A stretch of 64,000 nt of DNA from an uncultured Parvularculaceae bacterium (GTDB lineage: Bacteria > Pseudomonadota > Alphaproteobacteria > Caulobacterales > Parvularculaceae): positions 62,001-126,000 of the forward strand of contig CAMYLZ010000012.1 in assembly GCA_947259375.1 (NCBI GenBank), in the 5' to 3' direction. The notes under the pieces were generated by a model. The model had not been told where the DNA came from, searched no databases, and saw only the letters and a program-made list of their open reading frames with translations. A program made the position numbers and the translations under genes. The first letter of the stretch is position 1, and every line of letters starts with the position of its first letter. Of this stretch, positions 53,329 to 64,000 are shown in pieces.

Positions 53329-53370
53329 GTCCCCGTAGCTCAGCAGGATAGAGCATCAGATTCCTAATCT
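53329..53370 (+). tRNA. 5' half of tRNA-Arg (anticodon CCT), cut in the anticodon arm
   Basis: The sequence starts GTCCCCGTAGCTCAGCAGG and runs through the D arm (GCTC/GAGC), the stem TCAGA and the loop TTCCTAA. It then keeps only TCT of the 3' stem before changing to CCCGACCTATATATAA. No variable loop, T arm or acceptor 3' strand follows. This is a tRNA gene split by integration, and the rest should be at the far end of the island beyond 64000. Confidence 0.8.
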
Positions 53371-53508: not shown

Positions 53509-55050
53509 ATGGCAGACCACACGATTATGGGCGGAAAAGTCCACGTTTATAAACGCGGACGAAGCCGATACTGGCAGTGCTCCACCTACATCGCCGGTAA
53601 GAACCGGCGTGTCAGCACCAAGCAGGAGAGCTTGGCGCAGGCAAAGGACTTTGCCGAAGATTGGTATCTGGACCTTCGCGGAAAGAACAATCGCGGCGAG
53701 CTGAAATCTGAAAAGACATTCAAGCAAGCCGCCGAGCAGTTTCTACGCGAGTACGAGGTCATCACCGAAGGTCAACGCCACCCCGGTTATGTCGAAGGAC
53801 ATGAGCGTCGGCTCAAGCTCCACCTTGTCCCCTTCTTCGGAGACAAGGGACTATCCGAAATCACTCCTGGCCTTGTGCAGGAGTACCGCATCTCCAGACT
53901 GAATCCAGACAACAAGCCAATCGAAAAGCCGTTCAAACAGGCGGTTCGCCAGTTTGAAAAGGAATACGGCTTTCGCAGCAATGACCGTACGGAACGCGAA
54001 GCCGAGTTCCGCCTTGAAACCGTGAAAAAGCACATCGTTCCCTATTTCAGCGACGCAGTTGCATCCACCGTCACATCCAAGGCTATCGAGAAATACCGCG
54101 ACTACCGGATTTCGGAGATAGATCAGGAACCCGCCATCGCCGCAAAGATGGTGGACCGGGAACTAGGCGCGCTTGGCGAAATGCTACGCTGGATGAAACA
54201 GCGCAGCAGGCCGCCGTCCAAGAGCACGATGCACCACGAGATCGTGACGCTTCGGCAGGTCATAAAGACCGCCATCCGCCACGGCTGGCTCGCACACCTG
54301 CCCGACTTCTCGCCCCCTTACCGGAAGGCCGAGAAGATTGCCCACCGCGCGTGGTTCTCGCAGGAAGAATACCGGAAGCTCTACGAGGCGTCCCGCGCCC
54401 GCACCCAACAATTCAAGGGCACGGCAAGGGCGTGGCCCAACGAGCAGTTGCACGACTACATCCTGTTCATGGCGAATACCGGCATGCGTCCGGATGAAGC
54501 CAACACGCTTGAGTTTCGCGACGTGGAGATCGTCGAGGACGAAGGAACCGGCGAAACGATCCTACTGATTTCAGTTCGGGGAAAGCGCGGTGTCGGCTAT
54601 TGCAAGAGCATGGCGAATGCCGTGCGGCCGTTTGAGCGGCTGCGCGACAGGCTTCGGCCTGCATCGGATGACCAGACCGACGATGACGACACAGAAACCA
54701 GTTCGGAAGAACGGGGCTGGCGGAAACCTAAGCCGACCGACCTTGTTTTCCCCGCCAATCACAAGAAGCAATTCAACGCCATTCTCGAAGAGAATGACCT
54801 CAAATTCGACCGCGAAGGCAGCAGGCGGACGGCCTACAGCCTGCGTCATACCTATATCTGTTTCCGGCTCCTCGAAGGTGCCGACATCTACCAGATCGCC
54901 AAGAACTGCCGCACCAGCGTCGAGATGATCGAGAAATACTATGCCTCGCACATCGCCACGACGCTCGATGCGTCAGCGATCAATGTGCGAAGGCCGAAGC
55001 GCAAAAATCAAAGCAAGGAAGACGACTCCGGCAAAAGGCCGGAGGCTTAA
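53509..55050 (+). CDS. Tyrosine site-specific integrase with duplicated core-binding region
   Basis: This 513-residue recombinase has a beta-rich arm-binding start (1-40). Two similar helical units follow (70-130, FKQAAEQFLREYEV to LVQEYRISR, and 140-201, FKQAVRQFEKEYGF to IEKYRDYRI), then the catalytic domain. Active-site residues are Arg327 (NTGMRPDE), Arg446 in YSLRHTYI and a Tyr at 477 or 478 (EKYYASH). The second His box reads NCRTS instead of GHSS. The usual core-binding unit is single. It faces into the island from the tRNA fragment and likely catalyses its integration. Confidence 0.92.
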   Translation: MADHTIMGGKVHVYKRGRSRYWQCSTYIAGKNRRVSTKQESLAQAKDFAEDWYLDLRGKNNRGELKSEKTFKQAAEQFLREYEVITEGQRHPGYVEGHERRLKLHLVPFFGDKGLSEITPGLVQEYRISRLNPDNKPIEKPFKQAVRQFEKEYGFRSNDRTEREAEFRLETVKKHIVPYFSDAVASTVTSKAIEKYRDYRISEIDQEPAIAAKMVDRELGALGEMLRWMKQRSRPPSKSTMHHEIVTLRQVIKTAIRHGWLAHLPDFSPPYRKAEKIAHRAWFSQEEYRKLYEASRARTQQFKGTARAWPNEQLHDYILFMANTGMRPDEANTLEFRDVEIVEDEGTGETILLISVRGKRGVGYCKSMANAVRPFERLRDRLRPASDDQTDDDDTETSSEERGWRKPKPTDLVFPANHKKQFNAILEENDLKFDREGSRRTAYSLRHTYICFRLLEGADIYQIAKNCRTSVEMIEKYYASHIATTLDASAINVRRPKRKNQSKEDDSGKRPEA

Positions 55051-55097
55051 TCCCCTTCTCTCACCCGTCAGGCTCGGAAGGCACCTTTAAGAGCCGT

Positions 55098-55128
55098 CAG
55101 GGCCAGCCCGTGGGGCGTTAGGGGCCTG
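55098..55128. repeat. Structured direct repeat, copy 1
   Basis: A 24-bp core (55102-55125), identical to copy 2, includes the small hairpin GCCC-GTG-GGGC. The outer flanks CAGGGCC and GGGCCTG can pair except for one position. It lies about 50 bp after the integrase stop. Confidence 0.6.
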
Positions 55129-55218
55129 GACGGGCAAAGGCCACCACCTATCTATCGTCCGGCAGCGGACACTTGCGGTGTGCCTTATTTCAGGCTGAGA
55201 GGGTAGCCGTTCAGCCGT

Positions 55219-55250
55219 CCGAGCCAGCCCGTGGGGCGTTAGGGGCTCGG
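55219..55250. repeat. Structured direct repeat, copy 2
   Basis: The same 24-bp core (55223-55246) appears 121 bp after copy 1. The flanks here are CCGAGCC and GGCTCGG and pair perfectly. They differ from copy 1 on both sides, so pairing is kept while sequence changes. The stretch 55051-55590 otherwise holds only one doubtful small gene. Confidence 0.65.
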
Positions 55251-55590: not shown

Positions 55591-55779
55591 ATGCAGACCG
55601 ACATTATGACCATCCAAGAGGTGGCGGAGTATCTCAAGCTCAACCAGAAGACCGCCTATAGGTTGGCGTCTGAAGGCGAGATACCCGGTTTTAAAGTTGG
55701 CGGTTCGTGGCGGTTCAAACGACAGGACATCGAACGCTGGATTGCCCAGAGGACAAAGACGCAGAAAGATAAAAGCTAA
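55591..55779 (+). CDS. Small helix-turn-helix protein (excisionase/MerR-like fold)
   Basis: This 62-residue DNA-binding protein reads TIQEVAEYLKLNQKTAYRLASEGEIPGFKVGGSWRF (residues 7-42; the last part is the wing), then RQDIERWIAQ. That is the HTH_17 type also used by excisionases. AGGAA precedes the ATG. Its stop overlaps the hsdM start (TAATG), so it is translated with hsdM. This suggests that it controls the restriction operon like a C protein rather than acting as the excisionase of the island, though the second role cannot be ruled out. Confidence 0.85.
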   Translation: MQTDIMTIQEVAEYLKLNQKTAYRLASEGEIPGFKVGGSWRFKRQDIERWIAQRTKTQKDKS

Positions 55780-58214
55780 TGGCGATCAAGAAGACCGAAC
55801 TCTATTCCTCTCTCTGGGCAAGCTGCGACGAGCTGCGCGGCGGAATGGATGCCTCTCAGTACAAGGATTACGTCCTTACGCTGCTCTTCGTAAAATACGT
55901 TTCTGACAAATACGCTGGGGACCCGAATGGCCTAATCGTCGTTCCTGAAGGCGGCTCATTCGATGAAATGGCAAAGCTCGGCGGCGACACAAACATCGGC
56001 GAAAAAATCAACATCATCATCAAGCGCCTTGCTGAAGAGAACGACCTTCGCGGCGTCATCGACATCGCCGACTTCAATGACGAGGACAAGCTCGGCAAAG
56101 GCAAGGCGATGGTGGATCGCCTATCCAAGCTGATCAAAATTTTCGACAGCCTCGATCTAAGCGCCAACCGGGCCGAAGGCGATGATCTGCTTGGCGACGC
56201 CTACGAGTATCTTATGCGCCACTTCGCGACGGAGTCGGGCAAATCCAAGGGGCAGTTCTACACGCCCGCAGAGGTTTCCCGCATTCTCGCTAAGGTCATC
56301 GGCATTTCGAAAGAGACCAGCCAGGACGAGACAGTTTACGACCCGACCTGTGGCTCGGGCTCGCTCTTATTGAAAGTGGCGGATGAATCCCCGCGCGGCA
56401 TGTCGCTCTTTGGCCAGGAGATGGATAACGCCACCGCAGCCTTGGCCAAGATGAACATGATCCTGCATAGCAGCCCGACCGCGCAAATCTGGCAGGACAA
56501 CACGCTATCCGAACCCTATTGGAAAAATGCCGATGGCAGCCTGAAGGCCTTTGACTATGCCGTCGCCAATCCGCCGTTCTCCTTCAAAGCCTGGAGTTCT
56601 GGCGTCTCGGTCGAGGACGATCCCTATAAGCGATTTGAATACGGCACACCACCAGAGAAAAATGGCGATTACGCTTTTCTCCTTCACATCATCAAATCAC
56701 TAAAATCCGATGGTAAGGGCGCGGTGATCTTGCCCCATGGTGTTCTTTTCCGTGGAAACGCGGAGGCCACGATCCGGCGCAATCTGGTCAAGCAGGGATT
56801 CATCAAAGGCATCATCGGCCTGCCGCCGAACCTGTTTTATGGTACCGGAATCCCCGCCTGCATCATCGTGATCGACAAGGCGGCGGCAAAGCCGAAGAAC
56901 GACATTTTCATGATCGACGCTAGCAAGGGCTTTATTAAGGACGGCAACAAAAACCGTCTACGCAGTCAGGATATTCACAAGATCGTCGATGTCTTCAACA
57001 AGCGGTTGGTGATTGATCGTTACTCCCGCCTAGTGCCTTTCGAAAAAATTGAAGAGAACGACTTCAACCTGAATATCCCACGATACGTGGATTCATCCGA
57101 ACCCGAGGATATCCACGATCTGACGGCGCATATGAATGGCGGAATCCCGAACACCGATATCGACGCGTTAAAGCCATATTGGGATGTATTTCCCTCGCTT
57201 CGTGAAACGCTGTTTGGGCCGAACGGGCGCGACAATTACAGCGACGCAAAAATACCGGCAGACGAGGTCAGGCAAACCGTGCTCGCGCACGAAGAGTTTG
57301 AGGCTTTCCGCAAGAATGCGCTCACCCCTTTCGCAGAGTGGAAAGCGCACTACCTAGATCGGCTCCGCGCCATCGAGATTGGGGATGGCCCGAAAGACCT
57401 GATCTTCGATCTGTCAGAGAACCTACTTTCCCGCTATGCCGAGCCGCCTCTAATTGACCGGTATGACGTGTACCAGCTTCTCATGAACTATTGGTCGGAG
57501 ACCATGCAGGATGATGTCTACATCCTCGCGCAAGATGGCTGGGCAGCAGGCAATGTCATCCGCGAGCTGATTCCGGCCAAGGATAAAAACGGCAAGAATG
57601 TTTACAAGGAGGAGCACGACTTTGAGTTCAAGAAAGTCCGCTATAAGAGCGATCTTGTCCCGCCACAGCTCGTCATCAACTGCTTCTTCGCCGAAGATCA
57701 GCAAAATCTAGACAGCCTTCAGGCCGCCCACGACGAGGCCAGCCAAACGCTGGAGCAGTTTGTTGAGGACAATAGCGGCGAAGAAGGCCTGATCGAAGAC
57801 GCCAAGAACGATAAAGGTAAAGTCAGCCAGAAATCTGTGAAGGAATGTCTCGATAAGGCCGTCGATCAAGATGAGATTGCCGCGCTCAAAAAATGCATGA
57901 CGCTGATAAAGGCGGAAGCCGCTGCAAAGAAGGCTGTAAAGGACGCAAAGAATAAGCTCGACGCCAAAGTCTTCGCGAAGATCAAGGTACTGAGCGAGGA
58001 GAACATTCGCACGATTGTGATCGAGGACAAATGGCTAGCGACCTTGCAGAGCGACATCGACAGCGAGATTGAGCGCGTCACCAACAAACTGGTCAATCGC
58101 TTGAGGACGCTGGAAGAGCGCTACGCCACTCCCATGCCAAAATTGTCAGAGCGTGTCGGAGAACTAACCAGCAAAGTGGATGGCCACCTCAAAGCAATGG
58201 GGGTGTCATGGTAA
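55779..58214 (+). CDS. hsdM: Type I restriction-modification methyltransferase subunit
   Basis: This 811-residue N6-adenine methylase has an N-terminal HsdM domain (ELYSSLWASCDELRGGMDAS). The SAM-binding DPTCGSGSLLLKVA is near residue 187 and the catalytic NPPFS near 264. The C-terminal 300 or so residues form a long helical, charged extension that shorter HsdM proteins of about 500 residues lack. It modifies host DNA with HsdS and forms the restriction complex with HsdR. It overlaps the HTH gene upstream and hsdS downstream (7 bp). Confidence 0.95.
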   Translation: MAIKKTELYSSLWASCDELRGGMDASQYKDYVLTLLFVKYVSDKYAGDPNGLIVVPEGGSFDEMAKLGGDTNIGEKINIIIKRLAEENDLRGVIDIADFNDEDKLGKGKAMVDRLSKLIKIFDSLDLSANRAEGDDLLGDAYEYLMRHFATESGKSKGQFYTPAEVSRILAKVIGISKETSQDETVYDPTCGSGSLLLKVADESPRGMSLFGQEMDNATAALAKMNMILHSSPTAQIWQDNTLSEPYWKNADGSLKAFDYAVANPPFSFKAWSSGVSVEDDPYKRFEYGTPPEKNGDYAFLLHIIKSLKSDGKGAVILPHGVLFRGNAEATIRRNLVKQGFIKGIIGLPPNLFYGTGIPACIIVIDKAAAKPKNDIFMIDASKGFIKDGNKNRLRSQDIHKIVDVFNKRLVIDRYSRLVPFEKIEENDFNLNIPRYVDSSEPEDIHDLTAHMNGGIPNTDIDALKPYWDVFPSLRETLFGPNGRDNYSDAKIPADEVRQTVLAHEEFEAFRKNALTPFAEWKAHYLDRLRAIEIGDGPKDLIFDLSENLLSRYAEPPLIDRYDVYQLLMNYWSETMQDDVYILAQDGWAAGNVIRELIPAKDKNGKNVYKEEHDFEFKKVRYKSDLVPPQLVINCFFAEDQQNLDSLQAAHDEASQTLEQFVEDNSGEEGLIEDAKNDKGKVSQKSVKECLDKAVDQDEIAALKKCMTLIKAEAAAKKAVKDAKNKLDAKVFAKIKVLSEENIRTIVIEDKWLATLQSDIDSEIERVTNKLVNRLRTLEERYATPMPKLSERVGELTSKVDGHLKAMGVSW

Positions 58215-59419
58215 ATCCAGGTCCCCACGAGATCGACGAAATCAGAGCTCCGGATGGCTGGGAGCTGCTATACATCGGCGAACACTTTGAGTTCAAGAAT
58301 GGTTTGAATAAGGCAAAAAAGTATTTTGGTCACGGTACGCCCATCATAAATTATATGGACGTCTACAAATACCCAGGGCTTTTCCTATACCAAATCGTCG
58401 GTAAGGTCGATGTCAATTCGGAAGAGAAACGTGCGTATTCAGTAAGAAAAGGCGACGTATTTTTTACCCGCACATCAGAGACTCCTGAGGAGATCGGGAT
58501 AGCGTCTGTCCTTATCGATGATGTCGAGGATGGTGTGTTTAGTGGGTTTGTGCTCAGAGCGCGCCCAAATACCAATGCTTTCAACAACGATTTTAAAAAA
58601 TACTGCTTCTCATCCAGTGCGGTTCGCAAACAGATACAATCAACTAGCTCTTACACAACGCGAGCGTTGACGAATGGTCGTTTGCTTTCTCAAGTAGTCG
58701 TCCCTGCGCCTATCGATATCGAAGAACAAAAGGCCATCGCGGAGGTTTTGTCGGACGTCGATGCTCTGATAGAACATCTCGAAGCGCTGATCGCGAAAAA
58801 GGGCGATATCAAAACCGCCACGATGCAGCAGCTTTTCGCAATAGATGATAGCTCTAACATCACTGAATTCGGGAAAGTTTGCAGTTTGCGAAAAACACGA
58901 TGTGCGCCAGCCTCAGCTCCAGAGGGTTCAAAAAGCATCGAACTTGAGCACATCCAGGCCGAAACGGGAATTGTATTAGATAAAACTCCAATGCTTGAGC
59001 TGGTTTCTCTGAAGTCCTCTTATAAGCAGGGCGATATTCTTTTCGGAAAATTGCGATCTTATCTCCGGAAGTTTCACTTAGCCCAAGATTCAGGATACTG
59101 CTCGACCGAAATCTGGGTGATCGTGCCCGATAAGGATGTTGTCGAGCCCGAATACTTATACAACGTGGTTCAAACGAACCGTTTCATCGAAGCAGCTAGC
59201 GAAGCTTACGGAACACACATGCCAAGGGCTGACTGGGGCGTTGTATCGGAATTCAAAATGAAGCTTCCTTCTTCTCTAAAAGAACAGAAAAAGGTGGCTA
59301 GTGTGCTAATGGACATGGAAAAAGAGATAAATGAATTGCGTAATCAAAGCGTCAAACTTCAAGGCATAAAGCAAGGTATGATGCAGGAACTCCTTACGGG
59401 GAGGACGCGCCTGATATGA
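58208..59419 (+). CDS. hsdS: Type I restriction-modification specificity subunit
   Basis: This 403-residue protein has two target-recognition domains, each followed by a conserved helix: IEEQKAIAEVLSDVDALIEHLEALI near 175-200 and LKEQKKVASVLMDMEKEI near 355-375. Each domain reads one half of a split target site, which cannot be predicted here. Local base composition is more AT-rich than in the neighbours, a common sign of exchanged specificity genes. The stop overlaps the next gene by ATGA. Confidence 0.93.
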   Translation: MVNPGPHEIDEIRAPDGWELLYIGEHFEFKNGLNKAKKYFGHGTPIINYMDVYKYPGLFLYQIVGKVDVNSEEKRAYSVRKGDVFFTRTSETPEEIGIASVLIDDVEDGVFSGFVLRARPNTNAFNNDFKKYCFSSSAVRKQIQSTSSYTTRALTNGRLLSQVVVPAPIDIEEQKAIAEVLSDVDALIEHLEALIAKKGDIKTATMQQLFAIDDSSNITEFGKVCSLRKTRCAPASAPEGSKSIELEHIQAETGIVLDKTPMLELVSLKSSYKQGDILFGKLRSYLRKFHLAQDSGYCSTEIWVIVPDKDVVEPEYLYNVVQTNRFIEAASEAYGTHMPRADWGVVSEFKMKLPSSLKEQKKVASVLMDMEKEINELRNQSVKLQGIKQGMMQELLTGRTRLI

Positions 59420-60351
59420 CGCCGGTGAAAAGCTATTATCGCATTATGTTGGGGCGCGGAAGCATGCACGCCCAGGAATGCTATGATGGCGAATTCATCG
59501 GCACGCATTTTGGCTTCGATTTCGATCTGTCTGGCGAGCTGCCGGACGACTGGCGTGCCTTTAATGCCAAGTACCGTGAGGTTTATCTCAAGAATCACCC
59601 TGATAAATCAAAGGTAGCCGCTGGCCTTGCGTGCGGCGCTGTTTGGTCGATCTGCAAGGGGATTAGGAAAGGCGACATCGTGCTTTGCCCTAATGGACAG
59701 GGGCAGTATTGGGTTGGTGAAGTCGCCGGTGATTACTATTACGAAGCCGATACCTTCTTCCCCCACCGCCGCAAGGTGGCGTGGCTGCCATTTCTGATCG
59801 AACGCTCGGCTATGTCGCAGAGCCTTCAGAATTCGACAGGCTCAATCGGCACGGTATCTACCATCACCAAACATGCCGAGGAGATCGAGTCCTTCATCGG
59901 AGGGCACACACGCCCTCAATTAATCGCAACCGACGAATTGGTCGAAGACGCATCCGAATTTGCTCTCGAAAAACACCTCGAAGATTTCCTCGTCCAAAAC
60001 TGGTCATCGACCGAACTGGGCAAGACGCACGATGTGTACGAGGTCGATGGCGAACTCGTGGGCCAGCAATTCCCCAGCGATACCGGTCCAATCGATATCC
60101 TCGCCATCAGCAAAGACCAAAAAGAGCTCCTGGTCATTGAGCTGAAAAAGGGACGCGCCAGCGATGTCGTGCTCGGGCAAGTCCAACGCTATATGGGCTA
60201 TGTCCAGGATGAGCTGACCGAGAACGGGCAGAAAGTGCGCGGGATTATCATTGCTCTGGATGACGATTTGCGTTTGCGCCGTGCTCTGAGCGTGACAAAC
60301 AATATCGATTTTTACCGCTATCAAGTGAATTTTAAGTTGTTCAGGGGGTAG
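59416..60351 (+). CDS. EVE-like plus NucS-like PD-(D/E)xK nuclease inside the hsd operon
   Basis: This 311-residue protein has two parts. Residues about 1-130 contain KGDIVLCPNGQGQYWVGEV, a PUA/EVE-like fold that can bind modified bases. Residues about 180-310 are a NucS/Mrr-type nuclease with FALEKHLEDFLVQNW, Asp227 (GPIDILA), Glu242 and Lys244 (VIELKKG) and the Q-x-x-x-Y motif Gln255-Tyr259. All expected catalytic residues are present. It lies between hsdS (4-bp overlap) and hsdR (1-bp gap), so its product is made with the restriction complex. It may cut DNA by modification status, on its own or with HsdR (inference). Confidence 0.8.
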   Translation: MTPVKSYYRIMLGRGSMHAQECYDGEFIGTHFGFDFDLSGELPDDWRAFNAKYREVYLKNHPDKSKVAAGLACGAVWSICKGIRKGDIVLCPNGQGQYWVGEVAGDYYYEADTFFPHRRKVAWLPFLIERSAMSQSLQNSTGSIGTVSTITKHAEEIESFIGGHTRPQLIATDELVEDASEFALEKHLEDFLVQNWSSTELGKTHDVYEVDGELVGQQFPSDTGPIDILAISKDQKELLVIELKKGRASDVVLGQVQRYMGYVQDELTENGQKVRGIIIALDDDLRLRRALSVTNNIDFYRYQVNFKLFRG

Positions 60352-60352
60352 C

Positions 60353-63300
60353 ATGGCGAAGATCGGTCAAAAAGAAATCGCCACGCAAAAGCGCATCATT
60401 AAGCTTTTTGTTGATGATCTGAAATACACCTATCTCGGCGACTGGAAGGACCGCGAAGACAACGGCAACATTGAGGTCGAACATCTCACCACCTGGCTGA
60501 AAAAGAGCGGCGTCAGCGAGGCCCTGATTGGCCGCACGCTGCGCGAACTGGACCAAGCCGCTGCTCTTGGTGAAGGTAAAAACCTCTACGACGCCAATAA
60601 GGCCGTCTACAGCCTATTGCGTTACGGCGTGAAGGTGAAAGAAGGTGCTGGCGAGCAGAATGTCACTGTCCAACTAATCGACTGGGATCATCCAGATAAG
60701 AACGACTTTGCCGTTGCCGAGGAAGTCTCGGTGCGCGGCGAGAACAAGAAACGCCCCGACCTTGTTCTTTATGTAAATGGGATCGCGCTCGGCGTCATCG
60801 AACTCAAACGCTCCAGCGTCTCCATCGGTGAAGGCATCCGCCAGAATCTCGATAACCAGAAAAAAACATTCATCCGAAACTTCTTCACCACCATGCAATT
60901 GGTCATGGCGGGTAACGATACTGAGGGGTTGCGCTACGGCACCATCGAAACGTCAGAAAAGCACTACTATCAATGGAAAGAACAAATCGAGCATGGGTAT
61001 GAGCACTTGCTCGACTTCCATCTCTCATGCCTTTGCAGCAAAGACCGCTTTCTGGAAATAATCCACGACTTCATCGTCTTCGACGCAGGCACAAAAAAGA
61101 CCGGCCGCCACAATCAATATTTTGGCGTGAAAGCCGCGCAGGAATACGTGGATCGCCGTGACGGCGGTATTATTTGGCACACTCAGGGCTCCGGTAAGAG
61201 TCTGACAATGGTTTGGCTCGCCAAGTGGATACGCGAACATATCGAAAGCTCTCGCGTGCTCGTTATTACCGACCGCACCGAGCTTGATGATCAGATTGAA
61301 AAAGTCTTTCTGGGAGTTGATGAGCAGATTTACCGAACTGGGAGCGGCAAAGACCTCATCAGCACCCTCAACAAAAGTCATGAATGGCTGCTGTGTTCAC
61401 TGGTCCATAAATTTGGACGCCATGATCACAAGAACGATGATGACGATGATGAAACGGCGGCGGACGAATTTATTGCTGAGTTGCAGGCCAGCTTGCCAAG
61501 GGATTTCCACGCCAAAGGTGAAATCTTCGTGTTCGTCGATGAGTGCCACCGCACGCAATCGGGTAAATTACACGCTGCGATGAAAAGCATATTGCCGAAA
61601 GCCACTTTCGTTGGCTTTACAGGGACGCCATTACTCAAAAAAGATAAGCAAAAAAGCATCGAAATCTTCGGCCCTTATATCCACACCTACAAATTCGACG
61701 AAGCGGTAGAGGACGGGGTGGTTCTCGATTTGCGCTATGAGGCTCGGGACATTGATCAATTTCTGACCTCAGAGGAGAAGGTCGATAAGTGGTTTGATCT
61801 AAAAACGCGCGGCCTGTCCGACATGGCGCGCGTACAACTCAAACAAAAATGGGGCACCATGCAAAAGGTGCTCTCCAGCCAAGACCGGCTTGAGCAGATC
61901 GTCAACGACATCCTGATGGATATGGAGACCAAGCCTCGTCTAATGGATGGGCGCGGTAATGCCATGTTGGTTTGCTCCAGCATTTATCAGGCGTGCAAAA
62001 TCTACGACCTGTTCAGCAAGACCGACCTTGCGGGAAAATGCGCAATCATCACCAGCTATCAGCCTTCCCCTGCCGATATTAAAGGGGAAGAAAGTGGAGA
62101 AGGACTTACAGAGAAGCTGAACCAGTACAGCATCTACCGGCGAATGCTCGCTGACCATTTTGAGCTGCCTGAAGACGAGGCGATGGGGAAAGTTGAAGAG
62201 TTCGAGAAGCGCGTTAAAGAGCGTTTCAAAAAAGAACCCGGTCAGATGCGATTGCTTATCGTGGTCGACAAGCTCCTCACCGGTTTCGACGCGCCGTCAG
62301 CGACCTACCTTTATATCGATAAGGCCATGAAAGATCATGGTCTCTTCCAGGCCATATGCCGTGTGAATCGCCTTGATGGAGACGACAAGGAATACGGCTA
62401 CATTATTGACTACAAAGACCTCTTCAACCGCTTGGAGGGGGCTATTGGGGACTACACGAACGGGGCGTTTGACCAGTACGATGCAGCCGATGTTGCCGGG
62501 ATACTCACGAACCGCGTCGAAAAGGGAAAAGAGCGGCTTGATGAGGCACTAGAAGCGGTGAAAGCGATCTGCGAATCCGTCATGCAGCCGCGCGGCCAGA
62601 AAGAGTTTTACGACTATTTCTGCGGGGACGTCGCCGATAAGAATGCTGCAGCCGAGAATGAACCAAAGCGAGTGGCACTGTACAAGTCTGTGGCGGCGCT
62701 CTTGAGAGCTTACGCAAACCTTGCCAATGAGATGGAGGATGCAGGGTACACGCCGGAACAGATCGAAGCGATAAAGGCCGATGTTCAGTACTACGACAAA
62801 ATGCGCGACGAAATTAAGATGCGGAGTGGCGATTATCTGGACATGAAGCAATACGAGCCAGCAATGCGGCATTTGCTCGACACTTACATCCGTGCTGACG
62901 AAAGCAACGTAGTCGCGGACTTCGAAGAGCTGGGCCTTATCAACCTGATTGTTAAACAGGGGATGGGCGCTCTGGATACAATGCCGGACAGTATCAAAGA
63001 CAATGAAGAAGCAATGGCCGAGACAATCGAAAACAACATTCGCAAGGTCATTATTGACGAGCAGTCCGTCAACCCGAAATACTATGAACGTATGTCGGAA
63101 CTCCTCGATGCGCTTATCGGAGAGCGCAGGCAGCAGGCGCTTGACTACAAGAAGTATCTCGAAAAAGTCAAAGAGCTTTGCTCTCAGGTAGTAAATCCAG
63201 GCGGCATCAATTCTGCCGCTTACCCAACTACTATGAACACTCCCGCCAAGAAGGCGTTGTACGACAACCTTGGTGAAGATCAGGTGCTTGTAACAAAGAT

Positions 63301-63457
63301 CGATACGGTCGTGCGTCACACAAAAAAGGCTGATTGGATTGGCAGCCGGATCAAGGAGCGCGAGGTTCGTGGTGCCCTAATTCGCGAGCTGGGGACTTAC
63401 GATCTTAATATCGATGAAGTGATGGAATTGGTGAAAAGTCAGTATGAATATCAGTAG
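60353..63457 (+). CDS. hsdR: Type I restriction endonuclease motor/nuclease subunit
   Basis: This 1034-residue subunit translocates DNA and cuts it away from the site. The nuclease motif is RPDLVLYVNG followed by GVIELKRS (about 134-153). The helicase has Walker A HTQGSGKSLTMVW near 280, motif II DECHRTQSG near 397, GFTGTPLL as motif III, and DKLLTGFDAPS plus a QAICRVNRL motif VI. All key residues look intact. AGGGGG precedes ATG 60353. It overlaps the metallopeptidase gene by 14 bp. Confidence 0.96.
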   Translation: MAKIGQKEIATQKRIIKLFVDDLKYTYLGDWKDREDNGNIEVEHLTTWLKKSGVSEALIGRTLRELDQAAALGEGKNLYDANKAVYSLLRYGVKVKEGAGEQNVTVQLIDWDHPDKNDFAVAEEVSVRGENKKRPDLVLYVNGIALGVIELKRSSVSIGEGIRQNLDNQKKTFIRNFFTTMQLVMAGNDTEGLRYGTIETSEKHYYQWKEQIEHGYEHLLDFHLSCLCSKDRFLEIIHDFIVFDAGTKKTGRHNQYFGVKAAQEYVDRRDGGIIWHTQGSGKSLTMVWLAKWIREHIESSRVLVITDRTELDDQIEKVFLGVDEQIYRTGSGKDLISTLNKSHEWLLCSLVHKFGRHDHKNDDDDDETAADEFIAELQASLPRDFHAKGEIFVFVDECHRTQSGKLHAAMKSILPKATFVGFTGTPLLKKDKQKSIEIFGPYIHTYKFDEAVEDGVVLDLRYEARDIDQFLTSEEKVDKWFDLKTRGLSDMARVQLKQKWGTMQKVLSSQDRLEQIVNDILMDMETKPRLMDGRGNAMLVCSSIYQACKIYDLFSKTDLAGKCAIITSYQPSPADIKGEESGEGLTEKLNQYSIYRRMLADHFELPEDEAMGKVEEFEKRVKERFKKEPGQMRLLIVVDKLLTGFDAPSATYLYIDKAMKDHGLFQAICRVNRLDGDDKEYGYIIDYKDLFNRLEGAIGDYTNGAFDQYDAADVAGILTNRVEKGKERLDEALEAVKAICESVMQPRGQKEFYDYFCGDVADKNAAAENEPKRVALYKSVAALLRAYANLANEMEDAGYTPEQIEAIKADVQYYDKMRDEIKMRSGDYLDMKQYEPAMRHLLDTYIRADESNVVADFEELGLINLIVKQGMGALDTMPDSIKDNEEAMAETIENNIRKVIIDEQSVNPKYYERMSELLDALIGERRQQALDYKKYLEKVKELCSQVVNPGGINSAAYPTTMNTPAKKALYDNLGEDQVLVTKIDTVVRHTKKADWIGSRIKEREVRGALIRELGTYDLNIDEVMELVKSQYEYQ

Positions 63458-64000
63458 CCATCACATCAGCGTTTCTAACATCTCCGTCGAGGTGGTTCGC
63501 AAACCCATCAAGAACTTGCATTTGGCTGTCTATCCGCCTGACGGACGTGTGCGCGTTGCAGTCCCTAGCCACATCAGCGATGACAATGTGCGTTTAGCAG
63601 TGATTTCGAGACTTGGATGGATCAAGAAACAGCAAGCTGATTTTGCGGCACAGCCACGGCAGTCCGAACGCGTCTATATTTCCGGCGAAACTCATTACTT
63701 GTGGGGACGGCGCTACATCCTAAACGTACACTGGCGTCACGGGCGGCACGAATTGTTCGTTAAGAACAACAAGGTTTTGGACCTGTATGTCAGACCTGGA
63801 ACGTCTACGGAAAATCGAGCATTGGTGGTCAACGAGTGGTATCGCGCCGAGCTCAAAGCCAGGGTACCAGAGCTACTGGAAAAATGGGCGCCGAGAGTCG
63901 GCAAAGCGCCGCCCATGTGGGGCGTCAAGAAGATGCGGACAAAGTGGGGAAGCTGTAACGCTGATAGCGGCCGGATTTGGCTGAACCTCGAACTCGCAAA
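63444..64000 (+). CDS. YgjP-like (DUF45/M48-type) metallopeptidase, cut by window end
   Basis: The plus frame from ATG 63444 stays open for 185 codons to the edge. It shows the YgjP pattern: VSVEVVRKPIKNLHLAVYPPDG-like start, LGWIKKQQADF, and KKMRTKWGSCNADSGRIWLN. The HExxH zinc site should follow beyond 64000. The start lies inside the end of hsdR. Proteins of this type often follow hsdR, with an unknown job. It is the sixth gene of the coupled operon. Confidence 0.85.
   Translation, partial: MNISSHHISVSNISVEVVRKPIKNLHLAVYPPDGRVRVAVPSHISDDNVRLAVISRLGWIKKQQADFAAQPRQSERVYISGETHYLWGRRYILNVHWRHGRHELFVKNNKVLDLYVRPGTSTENRALVVNEWYRAELKARVPELLEKWAPRVGKAPPMWGVKKMRTKWGSCNADSGRIWLNLELA

What the first reader, a model, noticed from the sequence alone, without database searches (positions are those of the whole stretch)
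55591..64000. Six-gene coupled type I restriction operon: HTH, hsdM, hsdS, NucS-like nuclease, hsdR, metallopeptidase
Every junction is an overlap or a 1-bp gap (TAATG, 7 bp, ATGA, 1 bp, 14 bp), so all six proteins should be made together. The two extra enzymes and the HTH protein are embedded in the coupled unit, not merely neighbours. This looks like an extended restriction system in which an EVE-like reader and a second nuclease act beside HsdR.
Basis: partly seen in the sequence, partly recalled or inferred. Interest (0 to 1): 0.72.

Follow-up and report, generated by a model that had tools for sequence, protein, structure and literature searches.

The report
Restriction operon carrying swappable modified-DNA nuclease
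A bacterial DNA-restriction operon on a mobile island carries, in a slot between two of its genes that related operons fill with many different defence genes, a nuclease that probably attacks chemically modified viral DNA; it is a well-formed example of an arrangement already known.

Summary
In detail: six co-directional genes (HTH, hsdM, hsdS, nuclease, hsdR, YgjP-type metallopeptidase) whose five junctions overlap or lie 1 nt apart. HsdM, HsdS, HsdR and the metallopeptidase form the core of a widespread hsd family: the metallopeptidase follows hsdR in 16 of 16 copies found in 398 genomes of the phylum. The nuclease occupies a cargo slot between hsdS and hsdR that relatives fill with DarTG-like, GmrSD-like, Fic, GIY-YIG or other genes, or leave empty; it was not found with the other 15 copies. 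Of 60 readable homologue loci, 38 are in this slot, 3 elsewhere in hsd operons, 19 without recognised hsd genes; the window's closest homologue (76%) is one of the 19. The 'EVE-like reader' and 'second nuclease' are one protein: residues 2-172 match EVE/YTH folds, 184-306 match NucS/EndoMS, and the catalytic residues are invariant in 67 aligned sequences. It is catalogued as defence candidate PDC-S02. Best reading: an autonomous, modification-dependent (type IV-like) nuclease made together with a type I system that cuts unmodified DNA. New member of a known kind.

The parts
53330..53367 (+). tRNA-Arg-like 5' fragment, possible left end of the mobile island (right end: complete tRNA-Arg(CCT) outside the window at contig 12 position 140464)
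   Evidence: 89% match over 38 nt to C12:140465-140502; ARAGORN tRNA-Arg(cct) there; not an exact repeat, so attachment site is inferred
53509..55050 (+). tyrosine integrase of the island
   Evidence: Phage_int_SAM_3 30.3 bits, over its cut-off of 22.6; Phage_integrase 19.3 bits, below its cut-off of 27.1
55591..55779 (+). HTH_17 / MAD1-like small DNA-binding protein, first gene of the unit; probable operon regulator (inferred)
   Evidence: HTH_17 72 bits; NF047737 84.3 bits over cut-off 80; TAATG overlap with hsdM
55779..58214 (+). HsdM, N6-adenine methyltransferase of the type I system (811 aa)
   Evidence: N6_Mtase 346 bits; PADLOC MTase_I PDLC03027 1318 bits, full length
58208..59419 (+). 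HsdS, specificity subunit (403 aa)
   Evidence: Methylase_S, two stretches; PADLOC Specificity_I 308 bits
59416..60351 (+). EVE-NucS_C nuclease, PDC-S02 family: cargo in the hsdS-hsdR slot
   Evidence: PDLC04799 531 bits, residues 5-309 of 311; fold matches
59419..59931 (+). EVE/YTH-fold reader domain (residues 2-172)
   Evidence: VIA-align Z 10.4 to VcaM4I EVE-HNH, 10.2 to PH1033, 9.9 to YTHDC1, tied within 1; no Pfam EVE match by sequence
59965..60333 (+). NucS-like PD-(D/E)XK nuclease domain (residues 184-306); D227, E242, K244, Q255 invariant
   Evidence: Z 13.9 to EndoMS 5gke, 13.7 to NucS 2vld; 67 of 67 aligned sequences keep these residues
60353..63457 (+). HsdR, nuclease-translocase subunit (1034 aa)
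   Evidence: HSDR_N 143 bits, SWI2_SNF2 233 bits; PDLC03044 1577 bits
63444..64000 (+). YgjP-like (SprT/M48-type) zinc metallopeptidase, continues outside the window to equivalent 64172
   Evidence: YgjP-like 126 bits; complete 242-aa ORF with HELIH in L002 12445-13173

Best explanation
This is a complete type I restriction-modification operon of a widespread hsd family, carried on an integrated mobilizable island. Its constant parts are HsdM, HsdS, HsdR and the YgjP metallopeptidase. A small HTH protein leads the operon and probably regulates it. Between hsdS and hsdR lies a cargo slot that different relatives fill with different genes, several of them defence genes. Here the cargo is one protein that joins an EVE/YTH-type base reader to a NucS-type PD-(D/E)XK nuclease. 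Most likely it works alone: the EVE domain flips a modified base (more probably a modified cytosine than N6-methyladenine, since HsdM puts the latter on the host's own DNA) and the NucS domain cuts nearby. Phage that escape the type I enzyme by modifying their DNA would then meet a second enzyme made from the same transcript. Shown here: genes, junctions, core versus cargo, folds, conserved active site. Inferred: one transcript, regulation by the HTH, base flipping, the base recognised, cleavage, phage defence.
For: Core: the metallopeptidase follows hsdR in 16 of 16 phylum copies (in L114 both genes are broken), 37 of 38 nuclease-bearing loci and 7 of 7 plasmid loci opened of 33 hits. Cargo: of the other 15 phylum copies 10 have hsdS in view; 8 have other genes in the slot, 2 have none. 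Slot genes scanned include GmrSD-like HEC-06 and HEC-05 and SoFic; 4 of the 10 scanned match nothing in PADLOC. Opened plasmids show two DUF262 genes, TrlF plus RNA-binding protein, DUF4433 plus macro, GIY-YIG, a hypothetical gene, an IS-disrupted copy, or nothing. Swapping: on the HsdR tree the nuclease label needs 12 changes, 10 forced by starred branches; distances correlate HsdR-YgjP 0.74, HsdM-HsdR 0.56, nuclease-HsdR 0.25 (32 loci). Autonomy: 19 of 60 readable homologues have no recognised hsd gene nearby; the window's sister L021 (76%, support 100*) is one of them; L097 keeps an intact nuclease beside a 94-aa HsdR remnant; the nuclease also sits in the slot of other hsd types (L014; L026, L039, L043, L051, L094). 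Mechanism: VcaM4I, an EVE-HNH enzyme, heads the (tied) matches of the reader domain and flips 5mC/5hmC (PMC7897488, passages); EVE-PD(D/E)XK proteins are predicted type IV enzymes (PMC7641849, passages).
Against: No activity has been measured. The reader domain is not recognised by Pfam EVE; in the Foldseek list only NucS/EndoMS chains have E of 0.001 or less, YTHDF1 comes at 0.0018 and VcaM4I is not among the 50 shown; YTH (m6A readers) scores almost as well as EVE in VIA-align; pocket residues were not superposed. Model pTM is 0.51, so the arrangement of the domains is unknown. The preference for one slot (38 of 41) and tight coupling would also fit a partnership with the type I enzyme. Nuclease distances do follow those of the hsd genes more than permutations (HsdR 0.25, 1 of 500 as high; HsdM 0.27 and YgjP 0.39, 0 of 500), and HsdS, a core gene, correlates with HsdR no better (0.23), so weak correlation alone does not prove cargo. 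The nuclease label on the HsdR tree is somewhat clustered (shuffled mean 15.4 changes; 9 of 500 as low).
Confidence: 0.6

Rival explanations
1. The nuclease is a true accessory subunit: it docks on the type I complex, with the EVE domain steering HsdR or the NucS domain adding a second cut, so the operon is one dual-effector enzyme.
For: Same slot in 38 of 41 readable hsd loci; same 4-nt overlap with hsdS in 17 of 33; slot shared across several hsd types; nuclease distances follow those of the hsd genes above permutations.
Against: 19 of 60 readable homologues lack a recognised hsd gene nearby; not found with the other 15 phylum copies of this HsdR; unrelated cargo uses the same slot; 10 forced presence/absence changes on the HsdR tree.
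Confidence: 0.12
2. It is a NucS/EndoMS-like repair or structure-specific nuclease recruited to process type I cleavage products or mismatched or branched DNA.
For: C-terminal domain matches EndoMS and NucS (Z 13.9 and 13.7; NucS_C over cut-off).
Against: The NucS equivalog models are far below cut-off (37.7 against 216 bits, 21.2 against 252); the N-terminal domain is EVE/YTH-like; the family is patchy, with a near full-length match only in the window's own genome of 398 and partial matches in 4 others.
Confidence: 0.13
3. It is an abortive-infection effector that senses modified RNA or nucleotides through the YTH-like domain, or unleashes non-specific DNA cleavage on a phage trigger.
For: YTH domains bind m6A in mRNA (PMC7641849, passages) and match at Z 9.9; other cargo in this slot includes DUF4433 plus macro-domain (DarTG-like) genes and a Fic protein.
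Against: The nuclease domain belongs to a DNA-cutting family and the top-listed reader match is a DNA-modification-dependent enzyme.
Confidence: 0.1
4. Ordinary passenger: the nuclease is inactive cargo, kept only because it sits in a coupled operon.
For: One homologue, L056, is split into two frames.
Against: D227, E242, K244 and Q255 are invariant in 67 of 67 aligned sequences and position 27 is always aromatic (L056 and other incomplete copies were left out of that alignment); 59-76% identity for the 80 loci kept, across many phyla.
Confidence: 0.05

Closest known systems
RRDM island of enteropathogenic E. coli (rptR-hsdM-hsdS-darTG2-hsdR-M48; PMC12255303, sections 20 and 25 and passages read)
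   Same: Same gene order, downstream metallopeptidase, small DNA-binding leader gene, and an embedded defence module between hsdS and hsdR; the paper calls this site a potential recombination hotspot. An E. coli STEC1012 locus with that gene content has an HsdR 66% identical to the window's.
   Different: The slot holds the EVE-NucS nuclease instead of DarTG2, and the leader is HTH_17/MAD1-like instead of RptR. The EPEC sequence itself was not compared.
PDC-S02, PADLOC phage-defence candidate
   Same: Full-length match of the nuclease, 531 bits.
   Different: A single-gene candidate; the four papers that the search for the name listed include no mechanism in the passages I read of two of them.
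EVE-PD(D/E)XK and EVE-HNH putative type IV restriction enzymes (PMC7641849; VcaM4I, PMC7897488; passages read)
   Same: EVE-type reader fused to a nuclease in one protein.
TgvAB embedded in the Vibrio cholerae VPI-2 type I operon (PMC11411939, passages read)
   Same: A modification-dependent restriction system embedded in a type I operon, protecting against phages with modified DNA without HsdR's restriction activity.
   Different: TgvAB is a two-gene GmrSD relative; here a single unrelated protein.
NucS / EndoMS
   Same: C-terminal PD-(D/E)XK fold and motif.
   Different: Different N-terminal domain; NucS equivalog models not reached.

Membership tests
Type I restriction-modification | HsdM with N6-adenine methylase domain, HsdS with target-recognition domains, HsdR with nuclease and translocase domains, in one operon | tested here: met
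   order and junctions
Type I restriction-modification | Methylation and ATP-dependent cleavage at a bipartite site | not testable with these tools
   Needs methylome and restriction assays
PDC-S02 (PADLOC) | Full-length match to a PDC-S02 model | tested here: met
   PDLC04799, 531 bits, residues 5-309 of 311
EVE-PD(D/E)XK type IV restriction enzymes | Reader domain of EVE type | tested here: inconclusive
   VcaM4I Z 10.4, rmsd 3.2, 128 aligned; PH1033 Z 10.2; YTHDC1 tied at 9.9; no Pfam EVE match at E up to 1 for the 67 aligned sequences, in the 25 of 26 families shown
EVE-PD(D/E)XK type IV restriction enzymes | Intact PD-(D/E)XK active site in the same protein | tested here: met
   Z 13.9 to EndoMS; D227, E242, K244 in 67 of 67
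EVE-PD(D/E)XK type IV restriction enzymes | Cleavage dependent on a modified base | not testable with these tools
   Biochemical assay needed
NucS/EndoMS | Equivalog-level match to NucS over the whole protein | tested here: not met
   NF003270 37.7 bits against cut-off 216; NF002876 21.2 against 252
RRDM-type hsd island | hsdM-hsdS-[defence cargo]-hsdR-metallopeptidase, with HsdR of the same family | tested here: met
   Order; HsdR 66% identical to that of an E. coli locus with RRDM gene content
RRDM-type hsd island | RptR repressor as first gene | tested here: not met
   First gene is HTH_17 / MAD1-like
MADS | MAD1 HTH | tested here: met
   NF047737 84.3 bits, cut-off 80
MADS | MAD2 methyltransferase and MAD5 specificity subunit | tested here: not met
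   NF047738 46.7 bits against 720; NF047740 22.8 against 400

The most novel reading that the evidence does not exclude
The operon is a two-layer, dual-effector machine: the EVE/YTH-NucS protein reads the methylation state that HsdM writes, or a phage modification at the same sites, and physically works with the type I complex or its DNA translocation, so that one operon restricts both unmodified and modified DNA by one coupled mechanism.
Probability: 0.08. Interest if true: 0.75.

Novelty: new member of a known kind. Interest (0 to 1): 0.36.

Why it matters
It separates what belongs to this common restriction family (including the metallopeptidase, whose role is unknown) from what is interchangeable cargo (nuclease, regulator), and gives the catalogued but unexplained PDC-S02 family a concrete, testable mechanism: a single-protein, modification-dependent nuclease found both in an hsd slot and at solitary sites across many bacterial phyla. 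If right, one operon transfer delivers defence against both unmodified and modified phage DNA.

Tried and rejected
Considered and rejected: MADS membership (the HTH passes, the two other subunits fail). NucS orthology. The HTH as a fixed part of the system: of 32 nuclease loci with hsdM and at least 700 nt upstream, 1 has a homologue (L058) and 1 has RptR (L063) (3 more loci were too short). In 289 genomes of the class, 15 (own included) have a MAD1-like HTH at E up to 1e-14, 3 of them over the curated cut-off, in varied contexts. HTH as the island's excisionase: possible by family name, but it overlaps hsdM and L058 has the same pair, so regulator is preferred.

Led nowhere: sequence searches of the reader domain in Pfam and the PDB found no EVE match, only nuclease-half and chance-level ones. 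No homologue in 50,697 phage records or, at DNA level, in E. coli genomes; 4 in viral contigs, one of them distant. Promoter and terminator scan uninformative. Paper searches for PDC-S02 (4 papers), a NucS-type defence protein (15 of 635 listed) and the metallopeptidase with hsd (15 of 354 listed) showed no functional study of these in the listed titles. The preprint on embedded defences (10.1101/2024.01.29.577857) is not held; I saw only citations of it.

Limits: the 80 loci are the best of 248, so the fractions hold for close relatives only. 20 of the 80 were dropped as not readable (under 1.5 kb on a side). Gene calls come from my own ORF picker and phmmer seeds; 'no hsd' means none recognised among about four genes before and five after. 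The alignment of 67 took the window and 66 of 84 loci; 18 incomplete, broken or distant copies (L056 among them) were left out. In the nuclease tree 59 of 61 readable rows entered (L056 and L082 too short), and only 13 of its 56 inner branches are starred. The HsdR search scored only part of the first-look candidates in some genomes, and some copies are near-identical (L122 and L125; L123 and L124), so 15 copies are fewer independent cases. The HsdR tree mixes loci chosen for the nuclease with loci chosen for HsdR, so only the number of changes is used; L045, a divergent HsdR, was left in it. Labels such as zeta toxin, AlbA, XRE and GxxExxY that I thought of for slot genes are recalled motif impressions and are not used as evidence.
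Full report
What is there. Six co-directional genes run from 55591 past the window end: HTH, hsdM, hsdS, nuclease, hsdR, YgjP-type metallopeptidase. The metallopeptidase is complete outside the window (L002 12445-13173). No reading frame is broken and the expected domains are present: N6-methylase, two specificity stretches, HsdR N-terminal nuclease domain plus SWI2/SNF2 motor, and a HELIH zinc motif.

Where it sits. G+C falls from about 0.64 before the island to 0.49-0.53 over the operon. A tyrosine integrase lies upstream (53509-55050). Beyond the window the same contig carries, in order, an ArdC antirestriction protein, a pentapeptide-repeat protein, a VirD4/TraG coupling protein, a NikA/MobC-type protein and a relaxase, and an IetA-IetS-like pair. 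A tRNA-Arg-like fragment at 53330-53367 and a complete tRNA-Arg(CCT) at contig position 140464 bracket about 25 kb. The 38-nt match is only 89%, so the ends are inferred. This looks like an integrated mobilizable defence island.

The embedded protein. It matches PADLOC candidate PDC-S02 over its full length (531 bits). An AlphaFold2 model made with 67 aligned sequences has mean pLDDT 85 and pTM 0.51. In VIA-align, residues 2-172 match VcaM4I, an EVE-HNH modification-dependent endonuclease (Z 10.4), PH1033 (10.2; an EVE protein, recalled) and YTHDC1 (9.9), which are tied; residues 184-306 match EndoMS and NucS (13.9, 13.7). In Foldseek itself only the NucS/EndoMS chains reach E 0.001. D227, E242, K244, Q255 and nine N-domain residues (R9, F49, C73, P92, Y98, Y107, H117, R119, W123) are invariant in the 67 sequences; position 27 is always aromatic. 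EVE-PD(D/E)XK proteins have been predicted to be type IV restriction enzymes (PMC7641849, passages read), and VcaM4I flips 5mC or 5hmC into a pocket (PMC7897488, passages read).

Core or cargo? I tested this from both sides. From the HsdR side: 16 copies of this HsdR subtype (E up to 1e-150) were found in 15 of 398 genomes of the phylum. The metallopeptidase follows hsdR in all 16, though in L114 both genes are broken. The nuclease is present only with the window's copy: none is visible in the other loci, and a search of the same 398 genomes found none in those 14 genomes. Of the other 15 copies, 10 have hsdS in view: 8 carry other genes between hsdS and hsdR and 2 carry none. Three more have other non-hsd genes directly upstream of hsdR, and two are cut by the contig start. 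Ten slot genes were scanned against PADLOC: the clearest matches are GmrSD-like HEC-06 (L124) and HEC-05 (L134) and SoFic (L127); 4 of the 10 match nothing. Seven of 33 plasmid hits were opened: two DUF262 genes, TrlF plus RNA-binding protein, DUF4433 plus macro domain (gene content of the RRDM island), an IS-disrupted copy, a hypothetical gene, GIY-YIG, and an empty slot; all seven have the metallopeptidase.

From the nuclease side: 248 relatives were found in named genomes and the best 80 kept (59 to 76% identity). Sixty are readable on both sides. Of these, 41 lie in hsd operons: 38 between hsdS and hsdR, 2 before hsdM, 1 between hsdM and hsdS. Nineteen have no recognised hsd gene nearby. 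Among ten neighbours of such copies scanned, some are housekeeping genes (anthranilate synthase, DNA polymerase III gamma/tau, HSP70); of 45 neighbours scanned against PADLOC a few match defence candidates. The window's sister, L021 (76%), is one of the 19; its neighbours look like maf, pnp, rpsO and truB (names recalled from the sequences). The 38 include slots of a different hsd type (L026, L039, L043, L051, L094), and Acinetobacter plasmids have a third type with an Abi gene added. L097 has lost most of HsdR but keeps the nuclease. In plasmids, 18 records match the nuclease, 7 of them over 80% of its length, all 7 Acinetobacter; of the 7 hits I opened, three distant or shorter ones (L016, L018, L019) have no hsd gene annotated nearby and one (L017) lies between hsdM and hsdS of another hsd type.

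History. On a tree of 57 HsdR proteins the presence of the nuclease changes at least 12 times, 10 forced by well supported branches; shuffled labels need 15.4 on average, so the label is also somewhat clustered. On the nuclease tree the label 'no hsd nearby' changes 15 times, about as for shuffled labels (mean 15.7), but only 6 changes are forced by starred branches. In 32 loci with all five proteins, pairwise distances correlate 0.74 for HsdR with the metallopeptidase, 0.56 for HsdM with HsdR and 0.25 for the nuclease with HsdR. Against a simple reading, the nuclease-metallopeptidase value is 0.39 and HsdS, a core gene, reaches only 0.23 with HsdR. Short-term co-inheritance exists: the five nearest HsdR relatives of the window (L025, L046, L037, L035, L071) also carry the nuclease, but those loci were fetched through the nuclease.

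How it most likely works. The type I enzyme methylates its own sites with N6-methyladenine and cuts unmodified foreign DNA (established for the family). The cargo nuclease most likely recognises a modified base and cuts by itself. Because HsdM marks host DNA with N6-methyladenine, a reader of that base would endanger the host, so a modified cytosine or a larger phage modification is more likely (inference). TgvAB, a modification-dependent system embedded in a Vibrio cholerae type I operon, protects without HsdR's restriction activity (PMC11411939, passages read), which is the closest tested precedent I found. The HTH probably regulates the operon, as RptR represses the RRDM island (PMC12255303, sections 20 and 25 and passages read); the HTH here is of another family.

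Known or new. The operon layout, the slot and the idea of embedded defence genes are in print (PMC12255303, PMC11411939; the embedding preprint was seen only as a citation). The nuclease family is catalogued. What I did not find stated in the listings and passages I saw is the EVE-NucS make-up of PDC-S02 and its repeated occurrence both in this slot and at solitary sites. That is a useful clarification of a known kind, not a new kind of system.

Noticed in passing
window 53330-53367 to contig position 140540 (beyond the window): About 25 kb mobilizable island bracketed by tRNA-Arg sequences, with integrase, ArdC, pentapeptide protein, coupling protein, NikA/MobC-like protein and one relaxase gene.
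   Followed up: partly
L007:2783-6364 (contig 12, about 134782-138363): AAA ATPase plus subtilisin-like protease pair matching the IetA-IetS defence system (253.6 and 129.2 bits) on the same island.
   Followed up: partly
window 55092-55125 and 55213-55246: Two 34-nt direct repeats, 94% alike, between the integrase and the HTH gene; function unknown.
   Followed up: no
L014 and L020 (Acinetobacter plasmids): A different hsd type with a second hsdS upstream, and an Abi gene added after the nuclease in the slot.
   Followed up: no
L064: One slot holds a DUF262 (GmrSD-like) gene, the EVE-NucS nuclease and two more ORFs, so cargo can stack.
   Followed up: no
L143, L144, L150, L151, L155: MAD1-like HTH genes sit directly before other large proteins (one unlabelled family in L143, L144 and L150; HsdM-like in L155 and, by the search coordinates, L151), suggesting a general leader regulator of defence operons.
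   Followed up: partly
copies of this HsdR family examined (L105-L142 and nuclease loci): The YgjP-type metallopeptidase is nearly invariant after hsdR although its role in restriction is unknown to me; a protease that limits HsdR would fit (inference).
   Followed up: partly
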